Shown here: piece by piece, positions 8,701-15,850 of the stretch | How positions within the stretch are numbered: position 1 is the stretch's first letter | Layout of the letters: each line of letters begins with the position of its first letter | Source of the DNA: a bacterium | GTDB lineage: Bacteria; SM23-31; JAUVVT01 | NCBI GenBank assembly: GCA_030616165.1 | Contig: JAUWXV010000023.1 | Location: forward strand, 1-27,985 | Direction: 5' to 3' | DNA: 27,985 bases | Program-made: the position numbers and the translations under genes | The notes under the pieces: model-generated | What the model saw: only the letters and a program-made list of their open reading frames with translations | The model's database searches: none | Told to the model about the DNA's origin: nothing

Positions 8701-9186
8701 GTGACAAATAAAGATTATATAGATATATTTTCCAGATTCAATGGTGAGGAAGGAGATTTAATCCCACTCCTCCAGGAGATTCAAGAAAAATTCGGATATA
8801 TCTCGGAAGAAGCAATAAAAAATATTTCCCGTTTTTTGAAAATCTCAGAAAATCAAATATTTGGAGTTGCTTCCTTCTATTCCCAGTTCAAGTTTATCGA
8901 GTCAGGAAAATACACAATTAAAGTCTGTATGGGAACAGCCTGCCATGTAAGAGGTTCGCTGAACATCCTGGATGAATTCAGGAGAAACCTTCACGTAGAG
9001 GCAGACGAGACAACTGACGACAAATTGTTTACTCTGGAAACGGTGAATTGTGTGGGAGCATGCGCCTTGGGTCCAATTGTTATCTTTAGTGGAGATTACC
9101 ATGGACAGATGAAAATAAAAATAGTCAGGGAACTCCTCGAAAAATATAAATCTAAGAATGAAAAGGAGAGTGAGACTGCTGTATGA
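8701..9186 (+). CDS. nuoE: NuoE/HydC-like [2Fe-2S] subunit of an electron-bifurcating complex
   Basis: A 161-residue thioredoxin-like ferredoxin, the size of HydC/HndA/NuoE subunits. The [2Fe-2S] ligands are visible as C76-x4-C81 and C117-x3-C121 (VCMGTACHVRG and VNCVGACALGP). The N-terminal helical part has LIPLLQEIQEKFGYI, typical of the family. It relays electrons to or from the NuoF-like flavin subunit. GTG 8701 is the start: AGGAGA lies at 8688-8693, and the nearby ATG at 8694 is out of frame. The next gene overlaps it by four bases (ATGA), a sign of translational coupling in a five-gene operon. Confidence 0.9.
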   Translation: MTNKDYIDIFSRFNGEEGDLIPLLQEIQEKFGYISEEAIKNISRFLKISENQIFGVASFYSQFKFIESGKYTIKVCMGTACHVRGSLNILDEFRRNLHVEADETTDDKLFTLETVNCVGACALGPIVIFSGDYHGQMKIKIVRELLEKYKSKNEKESETAV

Positions 9187-11069
9187 AAAACGGAATCAGT
9201 ATCAGACAACTGGAAGAGATTAGAGCCGGGATTTCGCAAACCAGAGAAAAAGATAAACCCTGTATAACGGTCTGCAGTGGGACAGGTTGTCATGCCCAGG
9301 GATGCGGAGAAATCGTTCGCGCATTCAGAGAAGAAATCAGGAAACTGGATATTGAGGAGTCCGTTGACATAAGGACTACAGGATGCCATGGCTTCTGCGA
9401 GCGAGGACCGATTGTTGTCATCTACCCCGAGGGCATATTCTATGAAAAGCTCAAAATCAAGAATGTTGCAGAGGTTGTTTCAGAAACAATAGTGAACAAG
9501 AGGATTATTGACAGACTTCTCTTTGTTGACCCCGTGACAAAGAAAAAAATTGTTCATGAGAAAGATGTGCCCTTCTATAAGAAACAGAAGCGTGTCGTTT
9601 TTGGGAACAACGGATTGATAGATCCGACTGATATCAAAGACTACATAGCTGTGGGCGGATATCAGGCTCTTGTGAAGGCATTTCGTGATATGACTCCAGA
9701 GGAGGTCATCGCTGAAATTAAAGTTTCGGGCTTAAGAGGAAGAGGAGGAGCAGGATTCCCCACAGGAAGAAAATGGGCGGACTGTCGCGGCACTATCTCC
9801 GACACGAAGTATCTCATTTGCAACGCCGACGAAGGAGACCCGGGTGCCTTCATGGACCGAAGCTTGCTGGAAGGTAATCCCCACAGCGTCATAGAAGGTA
9901 TGATAATCGGAGCATATGCTATTGGCGCTTCGGTGGGCGTTATCTACGTCCGAATGGAATATCCGCTTGCCGTAAAACATATAAAAATTGCTCTAAAAAA
10001 GGCAAGAGAATACGGGCTGTTGGGCAAATCAGTCCTTAAATCTGACTTTCGATTTGATATTCATGTGTTTCAGGGAGCGGGAGCCTTTGTCTCTGGAGAA
10101 GAGACTTCTATGATGGCTTCCATTGAAGGCAGGCGCTCTTTTCCAAGACCAAGACCGCCTTTTCCCACTCAGTCCGGTTTGTGGGGAAAACCCACGACTA
10201 TCAACAATGTGGAAACATGGGCTAATGTTACTCACATAATTGCGAAAGGAGCCGACTGGTATTCAAAGATTGGTACCAGGGACAGCAAGGGAACAAAGAT
10301 ATTCTCTCTGGTGGGCAAAATCAACAATACAGGCTTGGTTGAAGTACCTATGGGAATCACGCTGAGACAGATTATCTACGAAATCGGTGGCGGAATAAAG
10401 AACAAAAAAAAGTTCAAGGCTGTTCAGACTGGAGGTCCCTCGGGAGGATGTATCCCTGAGAATATGATTGATCTGCCCATAGACTATGAAACGCTGGCTG
10501 AGGCTGGTTCTATCATGGGCTCCGGCGGTATGATTGTGATGGATGAGGACACATGCATGGTGGATGTGGCTCTCTATTTCTTGAAGTTTACTCAGGAGGA
10601 GTCTTGTGGGAAATGTGTCCCCTGTCGGATAGGAACCGTGAAAATGGTAGAGATCCTGACTCGCATCACTGAAGGAAAAGGAGAAGAAGGAGATATTGAA
10701 AGGTTAGAAAATCTTGCCAGGACCATCAAAACACTTTCGCTTTGTGGGTTAGGACAGACTGCTCCGAATCCGGTGTTAACGACACTCCGCTATTTCAGAC
10801 CAGAATATCTGTCGCATGTGAAGGAGAAGCATTGTCCGGCTGCAGTCTGCAAGGAACTATTCGAATACCGAATAATCCCGGAAAAATGCACCGGATGTCA
10901 GCAGTGCGTCAAGGTGTGTCCCACAGATGCTATTACTGGAGCCAAGGCAGAATTACATATCCTTGATCCATTAAAATGTATTAAGTGCAGAGCCTGTTAT
11001 GAAATCTGTCGTTTCGACGCTATAGTCGGTGATGCTGTTCATCATCAGGTACAAACGGAGAATCTCTGA
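9183..11069 (+). CDS. nuoF: NuoF/HydB-like FMN- and NAD(H)-binding subunit with extra Fe-S domains
   Basis: A 628-residue protein with the full HydB/HndC layout. An N-terminal thioredoxin-like [2Fe-2S] domain has C31-x4-C36 and C68-x3-C72. The NuoF core has the FMN/NADH motif GLRGRGGAGFPTG (about residue 183) and NADEGDPGAFMDR (about 214). An SLBB-type region follows. A [4Fe-4S] site uses ESCGKCVPCRIG (about 472) plus the later SLCGLGQ Cys. The C-terminal ferredoxin domain holds two clusters (KCTGCQQCVKVCP and KCIKCRACYEICR). In HydABC- and Nfn-like bifurcating complexes this subunit contains the FMN proposed as the bifurcation or NAD(H) site. A plain complex I NuoF lacks both terminal Fe-S domains, so this is the soluble bifurcating type. 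It overlaps its neighbours by four bases and one base. Confidence 0.92.
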   Translation: MKNGISIRQLEEIRAGISQTREKDKPCITVCSGTGCHAQGCGEIVRAFREEIRKLDIEESVDIRTTGCHGFCERGPIVVIYPEGIFYEKLKIKNVAEVVSETIVNKRIIDRLLFVDPVTKKKIVHEKDVPFYKKQKRVVFGNNGLIDPTDIKDYIAVGGYQALVKAFRDMTPEEVIAEIKVSGLRGRGGAGFPTGRKWADCRGTISDTKYLICNADEGDPGAFMDRSLLEGNPHSVIEGMIIGAYAIGASVGVIYVRMEYPLAVKHIKIALKKAREYGLLGKSVLKSDFRFDIHVFQGAGAFVSGEETSMMASIEGRRSFPRPRPPFPTQSGLWGKPTTINNVETWANVTHIIAKGADWYSKIGTRDSKGTKIFSLVGKINNTGLVEVPMGITLRQIIYEIGGGIKNKKKFKAVQTGGPSGGCIPENMIDLPIDYETLAEAGSIMGSGGMIVMDEDTCMVDVALYFLKFTQEESCGKCVPCRIGTVKMVEILTRITEGKGEEGDIERLENLARTIKTLSLCGLGQTAPNPVLTTLRYFRPEYLSHVKEKHCPAAVCKELFEYRIIPEKCTGCQQCVKVCPTDAITGAKAELHILDPLKCIKCRACYEICRFDAIVGDAVHHQVQTENL

Positions 11070-13600
11070 TGAGCAAAGAGAATAAAACGGTAACTATAAA
11101 TATTGACGACCAAATCCTTGAAGTGGAAAAGGGATTAACTATACTTCGGGCTGCCGAACAGAATAACATCTACATTCCTGCACTCTGTTCCCACAAGAAT
11201 TTGACTCCTTTTGGAGGATGTCGCATGTGCATAGTGGAGGTGGAGGGAATGAGCGGTTTCCCCACGGCCTGCACCACACCGGTCGAGGAGGGAATGGTAA
11301 TAAAGACTCATACCGCTCAAGTTCAGGCATCGAGAGTGGAGATTTTACAGCTGATTTTGAGCGAACATACTTCAAGCTGCCTGATATGTGAAGAAAAGGA
11401 TGAATGCAAAGAATACATGGGCACCATCCGGAAGGCTGGTGTGACCACCGGATGCCGGTATTGTCCTAAGGATGGTCAGTGCGAACTGCAGGACCTGGTT
11501 GAGAAACTGGGTGTGAAAGAGATTAACTACCCCATCTATTATCGCAATCTCCGGGTGGAAAAAGATGACCCCTTCTATGACCGGGATTATAACCTTTGTA
11601 TCCTTTGTGGAAGATGTATCAGGGTCTGTCAGGAGATTCGCATTGCTAACACCTTGGCTTTTAAACAAAGGGGACCCAAAACGGTAGTCGGTCCGGCTTA
11701 TGACCGCACTCATATCGATGCGGGCTGCGAATTCTGCGGAGCATGCGTCTCAGTTTGTCCTACCGGTGCTCTCTCGGAAAAAGTTAGTAAGTGGGAGGGT
11801 AAAGCGGAACGAGAGGAGCTCACAACATGTCCCTTGTGTGGAGTGGGATGTCAAATCCGCCTTTTGATAAAGAAAAATGAAATCATTGGAAGTCTGCCTG
11901 CGGAAGACCCGTTGGTGAATAATGGACAGCTTTGTGTCAAGGGAAGATTCTGTGTTGCCGAACTGGTAAATAACTACCAACGTTTGAGGAAACCATATAA
12001 GACCCAGAACGGCACTAAGGTAGAAATCTTTTTGGAGGAAGCTGTCGAGTTGTCGGCTGAAAAACTCTCAGCATGCTCACCTGAACAGTTTGGAATGCTT
12101 GTTTCGCCCAACTGTTCCAATGAAGATTTATACATCGCCCAAAAATTTGCCCGTGTCGCCGTGGGTTCACATAATATTGATACCACTGCGAGAACCTTCT
12201 ATGGAACCGGATTCAACGCATTCTTGAACCTTATGAGAATGGCTGTTCCTCTTTCGGACGTTCTAAAAGCCTCAATAATCCTTTGTATCGGGCTGGATAC
12301 AAGGTTCGGAAGGTCAGTAGTGGGTGTCGAACTCCGAAAGGCAGTTGAAAGGGGGGCTAAAATTATTACCATCAATCCCCGCCATCATAATCTCACAATG
12401 ATCGCCGAGAAAGAGTTTCAACCTGTTCCTAAAATGGAAGTTAATCTTCTCAATTCACTTGTAATGTTGACAGAAAAAAAGAAAACACCGACTTCACAGT
12501 TCAGGTCAAAGAGAACGACTGGAAGTCTCAGTGGGGAACTTTCCACGGTTGCTAAAATGCTTAAGGAAGCCTCCGCTCCTGTATTCCTTGTGGGTTCAGA
12601 ATTTCTGCAATACGACGAAAGTCCGCAGATCCTTGAGGCAGTCGAAAAATTAGCCCGAAATGTTAGTGCCGGGATTCTTCCCTTGCCAGTTCAGAACAAT
12701 CTATTCGGTTCCGTTCTCATGGGCGTTTACCCTGAATTTTTGCCCGGCGGGTTTTCTTCCACTGGTAAAGAAAGGATAGATAATCTCAGAAAAAGGTGGA
12801 GTGCGGATGTTCCTAATTTCTCTTCTCAGTGGAACGCAGAAACACTTTCATCGGGGTCGAGGATGAAGGTACTTTATTTTATAGGAGAGGTTCCGCCGAA
12901 CAGCAGACCTCCATCGGATTTCTTGATTTTTCAAAACATTTATCCCCCGGATATTTCGTATGAACCCGACCTTGTCATTCCTTCTGCAGCCTTTACAGAG
13001 ATGGACGGGACATTCATCAATGGTGAAGGGCGAATTCAGCGGGTAAGAAAAGCTGTGGACCCTCCGGGTGAAGCCTTACCCGATTGGGAGATACTCTGTC
13101 GAATCGCCCAGAAAATGGGAATAAAAGGATTTGATTTCTCCAATGCACGCGAGATTTATGAAGAAATCTCCTCTTTGATAAAAGGATTTGGAGACTTTGA
13201 TAATACAAAACGCAAAGCGAATCCCATGATATGCGAAGGAGAGTTGAATATTCCTGAGACCAGGCCCTCAAGGACAAAGAAGGCAGACAAAAAGTTCCCA
13301 TTTCTTCTCAGTGTTTCAGTCGGTGAGCATACTTATCGTGGTTTCCCACTCTCAACCTGGGTGGAGGGATTAAAAAAATTGTTTACCGAGGGTATAATAG
13401 ACATAAACCCGGAAGATGCCAGAAAAACTGGAATATCCCGGAGTGATGAGGTCATAGTGACATCAGCCTACTTCGAGAAAATCTGGTCTGCAAATATTCT
13501 GAGTGAACAGACGCAGGGAACCCTTCACGTCACGCTGCCTCAGGGCGAATCCATTGGAAATAACCCACATCCAGTTAAAATAAGGAAGAAAGATGTTTAG
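11069..13600 (+). CDS. NuoG/FdhA-like Fe-S and molybdopterin-family subunit lacking formate dehydrogenase active-site residues
   Basis: An 843-residue protein. The N-terminus is NuoG-like: a [2Fe-2S] ferredoxin (CSHKNLTPFGGCRMC, from about residue 39), a His-Cys cluster region (HTSSCLICEEKDEC and CRYCPKDGQC), and two [4Fe-4S] motifs (CILCGRCIRVC about 177, CEFCGACVSVC about 220). The rest is a molybdopterin oxidoreductase fold: the Fe-S motif CPLCGVGC with CVKGRFC (about 254-293), DGTFINGEGRIQ, and a C-terminal molydop-binding segment (INPEDARKTGISRSDEV). Formate dehydrogenases have Cys/Sec-His here; this protein reads TTARTFYGTG (about 371-380), with neither. I infer an electron-relay or structural role as in NuoG, not formate oxidation. 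It is placed between NuoF-like and NfnA-like genes, overlapping the latter by eight bases. Confidence 0.85.
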   Translation: MSKENKTVTINIDDQILEVEKGLTILRAAEQNNIYIPALCSHKNLTPFGGCRMCIVEVEGMSGFPTACTTPVEEGMVIKTHTAQVQASRVEILQLILSEHTSSCLICEEKDECKEYMGTIRKAGVTTGCRYCPKDGQCELQDLVEKLGVKEINYPIYYRNLRVEKDDPFYDRDYNLCILCGRCIRVCQEIRIANTLAFKQRGPKTVVGPAYDRTHIDAGCEFCGACVSVCPTGALSEKVSKWEGKAEREELTTCPLCGVGCQIRLLIKKNEIIGSLPAEDPLVNNGQLCVKGRFCVAELVNNYQRLRKPYKTQNGTKVEIFLEEAVELSAEKLSACSPEQFGMLVSPNCSNEDLYIAQKFARVAVGSHNIDTTARTFYGTGFNAFLNLMRMAVPLSDVLKASIILCIGLDTRFGRSVVGVELRKAVERGAKIITINPRHHNLTMIAEKEFQPVPKMEVNLLNSLVMLTEKKKTPTSQFRSKRTTGSLSGELSTVAKMLKEASAPVFLVGSEFLQYDESPQILEAVEKLARNVSAGILPLPVQNNLFGSVLMGVYPEFLPGGFSSTGKERIDNLRKRWSADVPNFSSQWNAETLSSGSRMKVLYFIGEVPPNSRPPSDFLIFQNIYPPDISYEPDLVIPSAAFTEMDGTFINGEGRIQRVRKAVDPPGEALPDWEILCRIAQKMGIKGFDFSNAREIYEEISSLIKGFGDFDNTKRKANPMICEGELNIPETRPSRTKKADKKFPFLLSVSVGEHTYRGFPLSTWVEGLKKLFTEGIIDINPEDARKTGISRSDEVIVTSAYFEKIWSANILSEQTQGTLHVTLPQGESIGNNPHPVKIRKKDV

Positions 13601-14435
13601 ACTGATAACAAACCAGATGATTGTGCCTAATATTCATCTCTTAACGCTGGAGGCTCCGGCTGTTGCACGTCAGATGAAGCCGGGTCAGTTCGTGATTTTG
13701 CGTGCCGAGGAAGACGGAGAAAGAATACCAATCTCCGTCTCTGACTGGGATGCAGAAAAAGGGACTGTAACTGTTATGGTTATGAACGTGGGTATCACCA
13801 CTGATAGACTGGCATCACTTGAAACTGGAATCAGCATTCCAACTGTGGTGGGACCACTTGGTAATCCAACGAAAATTGAGAAATTTGGCACTGTTCTGTG
13901 TCTTGGCGGATGCTATGGGATTGGAAGCATTTTCCCGATTGCCAGAGCACTGAAAGAGAAAAATAACAGGGTTTTCACAGTTATCGAGGCCAGAAGTTCA
14001 TACCTTTTTTACTGGGAGGAAAAACTCAGAAAAGTTTCTGACAGAATTGTCCACATTACACGAGATGGAACGAAGGGCTACCGGGGACATGTGGGAAGAC
14101 TTCCCGAAATCATCAAGTCATTTCAAGAGCCTGTTAATAGAATCATCATTAACGGATGCACCTTCCTTTTGAAGAGAGGGTCGGATGTGAGCAGACCTCT
14201 GGGCATAGAAACTGTGGTCAGCTTGAATCCAATAATGATCGACGGAACTGGAATGTGCGGTGTGTGTCGTGTCACTGTCGGTTCTACAACAAAATTTGCT
14301 TGTGTGGATGGTCCCGATTTCGATGGACACCAGGTAGATTGGGCTGAACTTTTGCAAAGGCGAAAAACATACATGAAAGAAGAGGTTATCCCTCATAGGA
14401 CAAGCAGGTGCGAAGAGCACGCCAGAAAATCTTAG
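13593..14435 (+). CDS. Ferredoxin:NADP oxidoreductase alpha-like subunit (NfnA/SudB/PyrK family)
   Basis: A 280-residue flavoprotein of the NfnA family. The FAD domain has ERIPISVSDWD (about 47-57), in place of the usual RIPLTIADYD. The NAD(H)-binding half starts at LCLGGCYGIGSIFPIARALK. The C-terminal [2Fe-2S] site reads MIDGTGMCGVCRVTVG followed by FACVDGPDFDGH, giving Asp-x4-Cys-x2-Cys-x11-Cys. This is the Asp plus three Cys ligand set described for NfnA. In Nfn, this subunit carries FAD and a [2Fe-2S] cluster and uses NAD(H). Its start lies within the last codons of the upstream gene, and the NfnB-like gene follows 11 bases downstream. Both points support one complex. Confidence 0.87.
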   Translation: MFRLITNQMIVPNIHLLTLEAPAVARQMKPGQFVILRAEEDGERIPISVSDWDAEKGTVTVMVMNVGITTDRLASLETGISIPTVVGPLGNPTKIEKFGTVLCLGGCYGIGSIFPIARALKEKNNRVFTVIEARSSYLFYWEEKLRKVSDRIVHITRDGTKGYRGHVGRLPEIIKSFQEPVNRIIINGCTFLLKRGSDVSRPLGIETVVSLNPIMIDGTGMCGVCRVTVGSTTKFACVDGPDFDGHQVDWAELLQRRKTYMKEEVIPHRTSRCEEHARKS

Positions 14436-14446
14436 GAGATTAAGTT

Positions 14447-15850
14447 ATGTCTGAACCGAAGCCGAAAAAGGTGGACTTGAATAGAAGGGGAATGCCCAAA
14501 CAACTCCCAGAAGTGCGACGGCACAATTTCAACGAGGTGGCACTGGGATATCCTGTTAAAATTGCTGTGGAAGAGGCAGAGCGGTGCCTGCAGTGCAAAA
14601 AGCCAAAGTGTGTTTTAAAGTGTCCGGTGGAGATAGACATCCCAGGTTTTATAAAGTCTATTTCAGATAGAAACTTTACTGCCGGAGCCAGGATACTAAA
14701 GCAGAAAAACTGTCTTCCTGCAGTCTGTGGTCGAGTCTGCCCCCAGGAGGAACAGTGTGAAGAAGCATGCGTTTTGCTAAAAAAAGGAGGTCAGATTGCA
14801 ATTGGTCGCCTGGAGCGGTTCCTGGCAGACTGGGAGGCTGGGCAGGGAGAACTTGAGATGCCCAAAATTTCACCATTTACTGGAAGAAAGGTCGCCGTTG
14901 TGGGCGGTGGACCTGCGGGACTCACTGTGGCTGGCGATTTGATAAAATTAGGTCACCAGGTTACTATCTTTGAGGCTCTGCATGAGATGGGTGGAGTCCT
15001 GACTTACGGAATCCCGGAATTTCGACTTCCTAAGGCTATCGTGAACAGAGAAGTTGACTATCTCAAAAAACTCGGCGTCAAAGTAGTGAAAGACTTTGTA
15101 GTTGGCAAGACCAGAACAGTGGAAAGCATTCTGGAGGAATTTGACGCTGTATTTATCGGTTCGGGTGCTGGACTTCCCTGGTTTATGAAGATTCCCGGTG
15201 AAAATCTCAATGGTGTTTATTCGGCAAATGAATATCTGACCAGAATGAACCTGATGAAGGGTTTTCTATTCCCCCGGTTTAATACTCCCATAAAGAATCA
15301 TAAGCGCGTTGCGGTTATCGGTGGCGGAAATGTGGCAATGGACTGTGCAAGAGTTGCCCTGAGGCTCGGGGCAGAAACCAGGATCGTATATAGAAGGTCA
15401 AGGAAGGAACTTCCAGCACGCTTGGAGGAGATAGAAAATGCTGAAGAGGAAGGAGTTGTTTTCGATTTTTTGACCCTTCCTATTAAATACGCTGGTGATG
15501 AAAACGGATGGGTGAAAGAAATCGAGTGCCTGAGAATGAAACTGGGTGAGCCCGACTCCTCTGGAAGGAGAAGACCCATTCCAATTGAGGGCTCTGAATT
15601 TACTCTTCCTATGGACGCTGTAATCTGCGCTATTGGTAACAGCCCCAATCCGCTCATCTCCGCCGTAACACCTGGACTGGAAGTGGGGAAGTGGGGAAAC
15701 ATCGTTGCTGATGAAGAGACTGGCAAAACATCAATGGAGAGGGTTTGGGCTGGTGGGGATGTAGTAACCGGCGCGGCAACGGTTATACTCGCTATGGGAG
15801 CTGGACGAAAAGCCGCCAGATCTATCCACGAATATCTTTCCTCTCTTTAA
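14447..15850 (+). CDS. NfnB / glutamate synthase small subunit-like NADPH-binding flavoprotein
   Basis: A 467-residue protein of the NfnB/GltD family. The N-terminal double [4Fe-4S] domain has CLQCKKPKCVLKCP (about 47-60) and CGRVCPQEEQCEEAC. The FAD-binding Rossmann motif is VAVVGGGPAGLTVAG (about 148) with GIPEFRLPK. The NADPH-binding motif is VAVIGGGNVAMDCAR followed by YRRSRKELPAR, typical of NADP(H) specificity. The C-terminus has VWAGGDVVTGAATVILAMGAGR. No glutamate synthase large subunit lies nearby, and the NfnA-like gene is next door, so a transhydrogenase role fits better than glutamate synthesis. In Nfn this subunit holds the bifurcating FAD. The start at ATG 14447 has AGGAGATTAAG just upstream. 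It is the last gene of the operon. Confidence 0.87.
   Translation: MSEPKPKKVDLNRRGMPKQLPEVRRHNFNEVALGYPVKIAVEEAERCLQCKKPKCVLKCPVEIDIPGFIKSISDRNFTAGARILKQKNCLPAVCGRVCPQEEQCEEACVLLKKGGQIAIGRLERFLADWEAGQGELEMPKISPFTGRKVAVVGGGPAGLTVAGDLIKLGHQVTIFEALHEMGGVLTYGIPEFRLPKAIVNREVDYLKKLGVKVVKDFVVGKTRTVESILEEFDAVFIGSGAGLPWFMKIPGENLNGVYSANEYLTRMNLMKGFLFPRFNTPIKNHKRVAVIGGGNVAMDCARVALRLGAETRIVYRRSRKELPARLEEIENAEEEGVVFDFLTLPIKYAGDENGWVKEIECLRMKLGEPDSSGRRRPIPIEGSEFTLPMDAVICAIGNSPNPLISAVTPGLEVGKWGNIVADEETGKTSMERVWAGGDVVTGAATVILAMGAGRKAARSIHEYLSSL

What the first reader, a model, noticed from the sequence alone, without database searches (positions are those of the whole stretch)
8701..15850. Five-gene NuoE-NuoF-NuoG/FdhA-NfnA-NfnB operon: candidate multi-flavin electron-bifurcating transhydrogenase
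Seen: five same-strand genes joined by overlaps of 4, 1 and 8 bases and a short 11-base gap. They encode HydC-like, HydB-like and NuoG-like subunits together with both halves of an Nfn-type NADH-dependent ferredoxin:NADP oxidoreductase. Known: HydABC- and Nfn-family complexes bifurcate electrons at flavins, and the acetogen Stn-type transhydrogenase combines NuoE/NuoF-like subunits with an NfnB-like subunit. Inference: this set would couple NAD(H), NADP(H) and ferredoxin in one enzyme, with an added large NuoG-like subunit and a separate NfnA subunit, so potentially two flavin bifurcation sites. No hydrogenase or active formate dehydrogenase subunit is present.
Basis: partly seen in the sequence, partly recalled or inferred. 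Interest (0 to 1): 0.78.

Follow-up and report, generated by a model that had tools for sequence, protein, structure and literature searches.

The report
Hybrid Bfu–NfnAB electron-bifurcating enzyme operon
Five co-directed genes encode what looks like one large enzyme that joins two known electron-splitting machines, and in every relative found the small Nfn subunit has had its usual NADH-binding pocket rebuilt, apparently to hand electrons to the other machine instead.

Summary
In detail: five same-strand genes (8701-15850) encode NuoE-, NuoF-, NuoG-, NfnA- and NfnB-like proteins with the stated overlaps. The order recurs in Zixibacteria, a Desulfomonile bin, Holophagales and at least nine other family groups. 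In three divergent genomes NuoG-like and NfnA are fused in one ORF, so physical linkage is well supported. The NuoEF core keeps every tested Bfu/HydBC cluster ligand. NfnB is the bifurcating type (Glu123, Arg193), not Lys-type StnC. In 47/47 NuoG-linked copies the NAD motif GGGxG has Cys at its third position and the second pocket loop GP is GC; 28 free-standing copies keep GGGxG/GP. NuoG-like partners carry an extra CxxCx5C triad (28/28 linked, 0/16 unlinked). Linked NfnA is one clade, while NfnB moved between free and linked contexts (p-AU 0.003). Best explanation: NfnA has lost NAD(H) and connects NfnB's bifurcating FAD to the NuoG wire and the FMN-based Bfu core, giving two bifurcation sites in series. 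The wiring is inferred, not shown. I found no published description. New variant of a known kind.

The parts
8701..9186 (+). Gene A: NuoE/HydC/BfuC-like subunit, one [2Fe-2S] (Cx4C...Cx3C)
   Evidence: best solved match 7t2r_C, bifurcating NiFe hydrogenase HydC
9183..11069 (+). Gene B: NuoF/HydB/BfuB-like subunit with FMN/NADH domain, N-terminal [2Fe-2S] and C-terminal 2x[4Fe-4S]
   Evidence: (7t2r_B E=2e-250)
10554..10850 (+). Stretch of gene B holding the B2 ligands C458, H545, C551, C556 (equivalents of A. mobile HydB C438, H525, C531, C536)
   Evidence: ligands from PMC8880783
11069..13600 (+). Gene C: NuoG/BfuA-like electron wire, 22 invariant Cys + 1 His, degenerate molybdopterin-type domain
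11453..11482 (+). Extra C129-x2-C132-x5-C138 triad inside an insert after the H100/C104/C107/C113 motif; signature of NfnA-linked NuoG-like proteins
   Evidence: 28/28 linked, 0/16 unlinked
13593..14435 (+). Gene D: NfnA-like FAD/[2Fe-2S] subunit with rebuilt NAD(H) domain
13905..13919 (+). NfnA loop 1: GGCYG (residues 105-109) in place of GGGxG; Cys107 invariant in linked copies
13986..13988 (+). NfnA Glu132 (EAR in place of GAR), 47/47 linked vs Gly 28/28 standalone
14157..14159 (+). NfnA loop 2: Cys189 (NGC in place of GP), 47/47 linked vs Pro 28/28 standalone
14447..15850 (+). Gene E: NfnB-like NADPH/FAD/2x[4Fe-4S] subunit, canonical bifurcating type
14813..14815 (+). NfnB Glu123, equivalent of P. 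furiosus NfnL E126 (Glu ligand of the proximal cluster); Lys in StnC-type proteins
15023..15025 (+). NfnB Arg193, equivalent of P. furiosus R201 next to the bifurcating FAD
   Evidence: role from PMC10482914

Best explanation
The operon encodes one soluble enzyme built from two bifurcating modules. Genes A-B-C form a BfuABC (HydBC-type) module whose FMN exchanges electrons with NAD(H) and ferredoxin. Genes D-E form a modified NfnAB module whose NfnB FAD exchanges electrons with NADP(H) and ferredoxin. NfnA no longer uses NAD(H): its NAD pocket has been rebuilt, and its FAD and [2Fe-2S] cluster now connect NfnB's high-potential branch to the clusters of the NuoG-like subunit and so to the Bfu FMN. 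The most likely net direction is making NADPH from NADH and reduced ferredoxin with two confurcation steps in series (formally 6 Fd-red + NADH + 4 NADP+ -> 4 NADPH if both steps are fully coupled). That pushes NADP+ reduction harder than plain Nfn can. Shown: gene order, fusions, conserved ligands, the linked/unlinked residue split, and the different histories of NfnA and NfnB. Inferred: loss of NAD binding in NfnA, the electron path, the direction and the stoichiometry.
For: Conserved order in distant genomes. NuoG-NfnA fused in one ORF in L183, L185 and L188. 47/47 linked NfnA have Cys in both NAD-pocket loops vs 0/26 standalone loci plus the two solved NfnAs. 21 positions separate linked from standalone NfnA, 14 of them in residues 100-211, against one position in NfnB. 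Extra NuoG triad in 28/28 linked and 0/16 unlinked. NfnA: linked copies fall on one side of a branch with the trait columns left out. NfnB: linked monophyly rejected, p-AU 0.003. B-cluster ligands intact. NfnB Glu123/Arg193 intact. Linked and standalone Nfn coexist in the same genomes, so the complex is not simply Nfn by another name. Precedent for an Nfn that does not use NAD: P. furiosus NfnII/Xfn.
Against: No biochemical data and no complex model. The high-potential branch of canonical Nfn (a-FAD about -280 mV, cited) lies near NADH, so the forward (bifurcating) direction through Bfu would be unfavourable. Only the confurcating direction is clearly downhill, and its cost in ferredoxin is high. 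The rebuilt pocket could instead serve another small molecule. The residue counts are not phylogenetically independent: one origin of linked NfnA is enough to explain the split.
Confidence: 0.6

Rival explanations
1. One complex, but NfnA's rebuilt pocket is a new active site (for a thiol/disulfide or another small oxidant) using Cys107 and Cys189 over the FAD, so the enzyme couples NADH, NADPH and ferredoxin to a fourth, unknown substrate.
For: Two invariant Cys at the two loops that line the nicotinamide site in this fold (fold knowledge, not measured here), plus invariant Glu132 and near-invariant Tyr/Phe108. Xfn has a changed NAD site and an unknown high-potential acceptor.
Against: The changes always come with a NuoG-like partner and sometimes with fusion to it, which suggests a partner protein rather than a free metabolite. 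No accompanying metabolic gene is conserved.
Confidence: 0.2
2. Two independent enzymes from one operon: a BfuABC enzyme with an unknown third substrate and a separate NfnAB.
For: Each module resembles a free-standing enzyme, and NfnB is interchangeable with free NfnB.
Against: NuoG-NfnA fusions. NfnA has diverged only in the linked context and a NuoG insert occurs only there. The NuoG-like subunit has no catalytic site of its own.
Confidence: 0.1
3. An Stn/Nfn-Bfu transhydrogenase in which NfnB merely became a separate gene; NfnB feeds NADPH electrons to the Bfu core without bifurcating.
For: Same substrates and a homologous Bfu core; Stn shows that a GltD-type subunit can feed a Bfu core.
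Against: NfnB keeps the Glu ligand rather than Lys, it is never fused to NuoG in these loci, and an NfnA is always present, whereas Stn has none.
Confidence: 0.1

Closest known systems
StnABC (Sporomusa type Nfn; 'Nfn-Bfu' type 1 of the Bfu family)
   Same: HydBC/BfuBC core plus a NuoG-like wire and a GltD/NfnB-type NADPH module; predicted NADH/NADPH/ferredoxin coupling
   Different: In Stn the GltD and NuoG domains are fused in StnC, the proximal cluster has Lys/Cys ligation, the FAD does not bifurcate and there is no NfnA. Here NfnB is separate with Glu123, and a modified NfnA is present.
NfnAB (NADH-dependent ferredoxin:NADP oxidoreductase; T. maritima 4ylf, P. furiosus 5jca)
   Same: NfnB 467 aa with all cluster ligands, Glu123 and Arg193; NfnA fold with FAD and Asp/Cys3 [2Fe-2S]
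   Different: NfnA has lost GGGxG and GP and carries Cys107, Cys189 and Glu132; next to or fused with a NuoG-like subunit.
P. furiosus NfnII/Xfn (5vj7)
   Same: An NfnAB whose NfnA does not use NAD(H); high-potential partner unknown
   Different: Its loops are GAYTG and GP without the two Cys; no Bfu module is reported in the papers read.
A. mobile NiFe-HydABCSL (type 3 Bfu, 7t2r)
   Same: Closest solved relative of the A and B subunits; same B2 ligands
   Different: Its third-substrate module is a NiFe hydrogenase, not NfnAB.

Membership tests
Bfu (HydBC/BfuABC) electron-bifurcating family | BfuB with B1, B3, B4 [4Fe-4S] and N-terminal [2Fe-2S] ligands | tested here: met
   C475/C478/C481/C521; C569-C579 and C599-C609; C31/C36/C68/C72 in window B
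Bfu (HydBC/BfuABC) electron-bifurcating family | B2 site: three conserved Cys and one His | tested here: met
   C458, H545, C551, C556 match A. mobile C438, H525, C531, C536
Bfu (HydBC/BfuABC) electron-bifurcating family | BfuC [2Fe-2S] subunit and a BfuA/NuoG-like subunit | tested here: met
   genes A and C
Bfu (HydBC/BfuABC) electron-bifurcating family | Coupled reaction of NAD(H), ferredoxin and a third substrate | not testable with these tools
   needs purified enzyme
Stn / type 1 Nfn-Bfu | GltD/NfnB and NuoG domains fused in one subunit (StnC), no NfnA | tested here: not met
   separate genes C, D, E; NfnA present (Stn definition)
Stn / type 1 Nfn-Bfu | Lys at the proximal-cluster ligand position of the GltD domain | tested here: not met
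   Glu123 in the window and in 47/47 linked NfnB
NfnAB | NfnB: proximal-cluster Glu, FAD-adjacent Arg, cluster Cys | tested here: met
   Glu123, Arg193, C47/50/55/59/94/98/104/108
NfnAB | NfnA: Asp+3 Cys [2Fe-2S] and FAD fold | tested here: met
   D217, C222, C225, C237; NfnA part of the L185 fusion matches 5jca_S, TMt 0.88
NfnAB | NfnA: NAD(H)-binding motifs GGGxG and GP | tested here: not met
   GGCYG and GC
Formate dehydrogenase / molybdoenzyme | Catalytic Cys/Sec-His in the alpha subunit | tested here: not met
   FDH 'ARVCHS' aligns with 'ARTFYG' in the window and is not conserved in relatives; short variants lack much of the domain
Respiratory complex I (Nuo) | Linked membrane and NuoB/C/D/I subunits | tested here: not met
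   none within the window operon; a separate complex I cluster lies on another contig, C274

The most novel reading that the evidence does not exclude
The first enzyme family with two chemically different bifurcation sites in series (an NfnB-type FAD and a Bfu-type FMN/Fe-S site), joined by an NfnA whose NADH pocket has become an internal junction. The invariant Cys107/Cys189 pair, possibly with the extra NuoG triad, holds a new redox centre or contact between the a-FAD and the NuoG wire.
Probability: 0.3. Interest if true: 0.88.

Novelty: new variant of a known kind. Interest (0 to 1): 0.72.

Why it matters
The Bfu family list and the Stn papers describe Bfu cores fed by many modules, but none of the papers read here describes one fed by a complete NfnAB. 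It would give the first likely partner for an NAD-blind NfnA, a question left open for P. furiosus NfnII/Xfn. It would also show how a substrate site turns into an internal wire. If two bifurcation sites work in series, the enzyme could drive NADPH formation at ferredoxin potentials where plain Nfn stops, which matters for the energy budget of energy-limited anaerobes such as Zixibacteria and sulfate reducers' relatives.

Tried and rejected
(1) Active FDH: rejected, catalytic Cys/His absent; several unlinked FDH-like relatives carry an in-frame TGA (probable selenocysteine), the linked ones do not. (2) Hydrogenase linkage: an Fe-hydrogenase-like protein (PF02906+PF04060) with HATPase and small regulatory genes precedes some copies (L047, L048, L050, L090, L191, L192), but its H-cluster motifs are degenerate, and it is absent from the window and from the copies L178-L181 that have upstream sequence. 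(3) A simple Stn: rejected on the Glu ligand and the presence of NfnA. (4) Structure of the natural NuoG-NfnA fusion (L185): mean pLDDT 77.6, pTM 0.52; the NfnA part is confident, but the cluster-bearing NuoG part is poor (many blocks under 60) and no coordinates are returned, so contacts could not be measured. (5) The script's 'no triad' result for L182, L184 and L195 came from a narrow pattern; reading the sequences shows the triad. (7) Literature searches for an earlier description found none; subscription papers and supplements were not searchable.
Full report
What is there. The window carries five overlapping or nearly adjacent + strand genes at 8701-15850 exactly as described. Profile searches identify them as a thioredoxin-like [2Fe-2S] NuoE, a NuoF with the extra C-terminal ferredoxin domain typical of HydB, a NuoG-family protein, an NfnA/PyrK-type protein and an NfnB/GltA-type protein. 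Against solved structures the best matches of A and B are the bifurcating NiFe hydrogenase of A. mobile and then other bifurcating HydBC/Stn/Bfu enzymes; those of D and E are T. maritima and P. furiosus NfnAB. The neighbouring genes analysed are a GalT-like protein upstream and a pyrimidine (PRTase, ATCase, DHOase) plus ribosomal protein L13 stretch downstream, so the neighbourhood gives no functional hint.

Conservation. A scan for relatives of C returned eight close loci: six labelled Zixibacteria, one labelled Desulfomonile and one Holophagales. All keep the same order wherever the contig is long enough (in L053 C is only 38% identical). In 132 genomes of the SM23_73_3 (Zixibacteria) phylum, NfnB homologues fall into two classes: about 25 at 74-86% identity to the window, and the rest at about 53-65%. 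In the first class a cluster-type NfnA and a NuoG-like C-terminus lie directly upstream wherever the contig allows; the six examples of the second class fetched in that search have only an NfnA upstream. At least five genomes carry both classes (G063, G105, G149, G151, G179), and the Desulfomonile bin carries the cluster plus two standalone nfnAB pairs. A survey of 386 genomes from many families found linked copies in 12 more genomes from nine family codes, and a sample of 297 genomes of the Desulfomonile bin's phylum found about 13. The window's own phylum has six held genomes and only this one has the cluster, so it was probably acquired by transfer.

Physical linkage. In three genomes (L183, L185, L188) the NuoG-like protein, shortened in its molybdopterin-type domain, and NfnA are one open reading frame of 830-841 aa. 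The NfnA part of the L185 model is confident and matches the P. furiosus NfnI small subunit (TMt 0.88). This is the strongest evidence here that the Nuo-like and Nfn-like halves touch, and at which subunits.

What the modules can do. Gene B keeps the ligands of B1, B3, B4, the N-terminal [2Fe-2S] and the unusual B2 site (C458, H545, C551, C556), which Schut et al. (PMC9304861) use to tell bifurcating from non-bifurcating homologues. Gene C has 22 Cys and one His invariant in 24 relatives: one [2Fe-2S], a His-ligated [4Fe-4S], a ferredoxin-type pair, an N7-type cluster, and an extra C129/C132/C138 triad for which C itself offers no conserved fourth Cys in the region aligned. Its formate-dehydrogenase active-site Cys/His is absent. 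Gene E keeps Glu123 (P. furiosus NfnL E126, the Glu ligand studied in PMC9503767) and Arg193 (R201) in 47/47 linked copies, so it is an NfnB of the bifurcating type. The GltD domains of StnC-type proteins have Lys at the first position (PMC10482914).

The unexpected part. Among 47 NuoG-linked NfnA proteins, loop 1 of the NAD domain has Cys in place of the third Gly of GGGxG in all cases (GGCYG in most), loop 2 has GC instead of GP in all cases, and Glu132 replaces the Gly of GAR in all cases. None of 26 standalone loci, nor the two solved NfnAs, shows any of these. One further copy (L158) has the linked-type loops but starts at a contig edge, so its neighbour cannot be seen. Fisher p = 4e-19 for loci, but this ignores common descent. 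Twenty-one positions separate linked from standalone NfnA, 14 of them within residues 100-211 (binomial p 0.012), whereas NfnB shows one. The NuoG-like partner carries the extra triad in 28 of 28 linked cases and in none of 16 unlinked NuoG/FDH-like proteins. On trees, linked NfnA is one side of a branch (support 95, seven trait columns removed), while linked NfnB needs six changes and one clade is rejected (p-AU 0.003). So NfnB has moved between free Nfn and this complex with little visible change, and NfnA is the part specialised for it. That the two loops flank the nicotinamide site is general knowledge of the FNR/PyrK fold, not measured here.

Mechanism. Because NAD(H) is already served by gene B and NfnA has lost its NAD motifs, the simplest reading is that NfnA's FAD now exchanges electrons with the NuoG-like clusters. 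Electrons from NADH plus ferredoxin, merged at the Bfu FMN, would run through C to NfnA's FAD and [2Fe-2S] and meet a second ferredoxin-derived electron at NfnB's FAD to make NADPH. With the potentials given in PMC9304861 (NADH -280, NADPH -380, ferredoxin -500 mV), plain Nfn yields about -2 kJ per NADPH and becomes uphill near -470 mV ferredoxin, while two steps in series yield about -12 kJ and stay downhill at -430 mV. The stoichiometry is hypothetical. The reverse direction looks unfavourable.

Comparison and novelty. Works like: Stn (NADH/NADPH/ferredoxin coupling on a Bfu core) and Nfn (FAD bifurcation). Membership: it meets the tested Bfu criteria; it fails Stn (no fusion, Glu instead of Lys, NfnA present); it fails canonical NfnAB on the NAD motif of NfnA. 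The closest precedent for an NAD-blind NfnA is P. furiosus NfnII/Xfn. The papers searched do not describe a Bfu core with a separate NfnAB, and the Nfn review has no mention of NuoE or NuoF. I rate it a new variant of a known kind, with a clear surprise in NfnA.

Noticed in passing
9183-11069 (gene B), residues 1-124 vs 435-620: Gene B looks mosaic: its first 124 residues are only 11-25% identical to most cluster relatives (63% to L187 at residues 63-124, 40-45% to A. mobile HydB), while residues 435-620 are 69-79% identical to the Zixibacteria copies L047/L048/L050. Possible recombination, or misalignment of the N-terminal domain.
   Followed up: partly
L185:5607-8726, L188:4567-7719: In two genomes with the NuoG-NfnA fusion, BfuB is also fused to a GltD-type domain (Lys type, LKRF, read in the L188 genome), giving an enzyme with a second NADPH-type module besides NfnB.
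   Followed up: partly
L067 (own genome contig C34): Own genome also encodes a BfuB-GltD fusion (1062 aa) with a BfuC-like protein, next to what look like NiFe-hydrogenase subunits, an NuoG/HydA-type Fe-S protein and Hdr-like genes.
   Followed up: no
L047:6284-7624, L048:6358-7626, L050:6361-7629, L191, L192, L090: A 422-446 aa Fe-hydrogenase-like protein with degenerate H-cluster motifs, with HATPase and small conserved genes, precedes several clusters; it looks like a sensor rather than a catalytic hydrogenase.
   Followed up: partly
L048:13376-14389: The NfnB gene of this Zixibacteria copy is cut to 337 aa and matches only residues 1-282, a frame break or assembly error.
   Followed up: no
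L190:4313-6736: NuoE- and NuoF-like subunits are fused in one ORF of 807 aa in this linked cluster.
   Followed up: no
gene C in L051, L053, L178-L180, L089: The molybdopterin-type domain of gene C shrinks in some lineages (843 aa in the window, 813, 754, about 750, 543) while the Fe-S ligands stay, suggesting that domain is only scaffold.
   Followed up: partly
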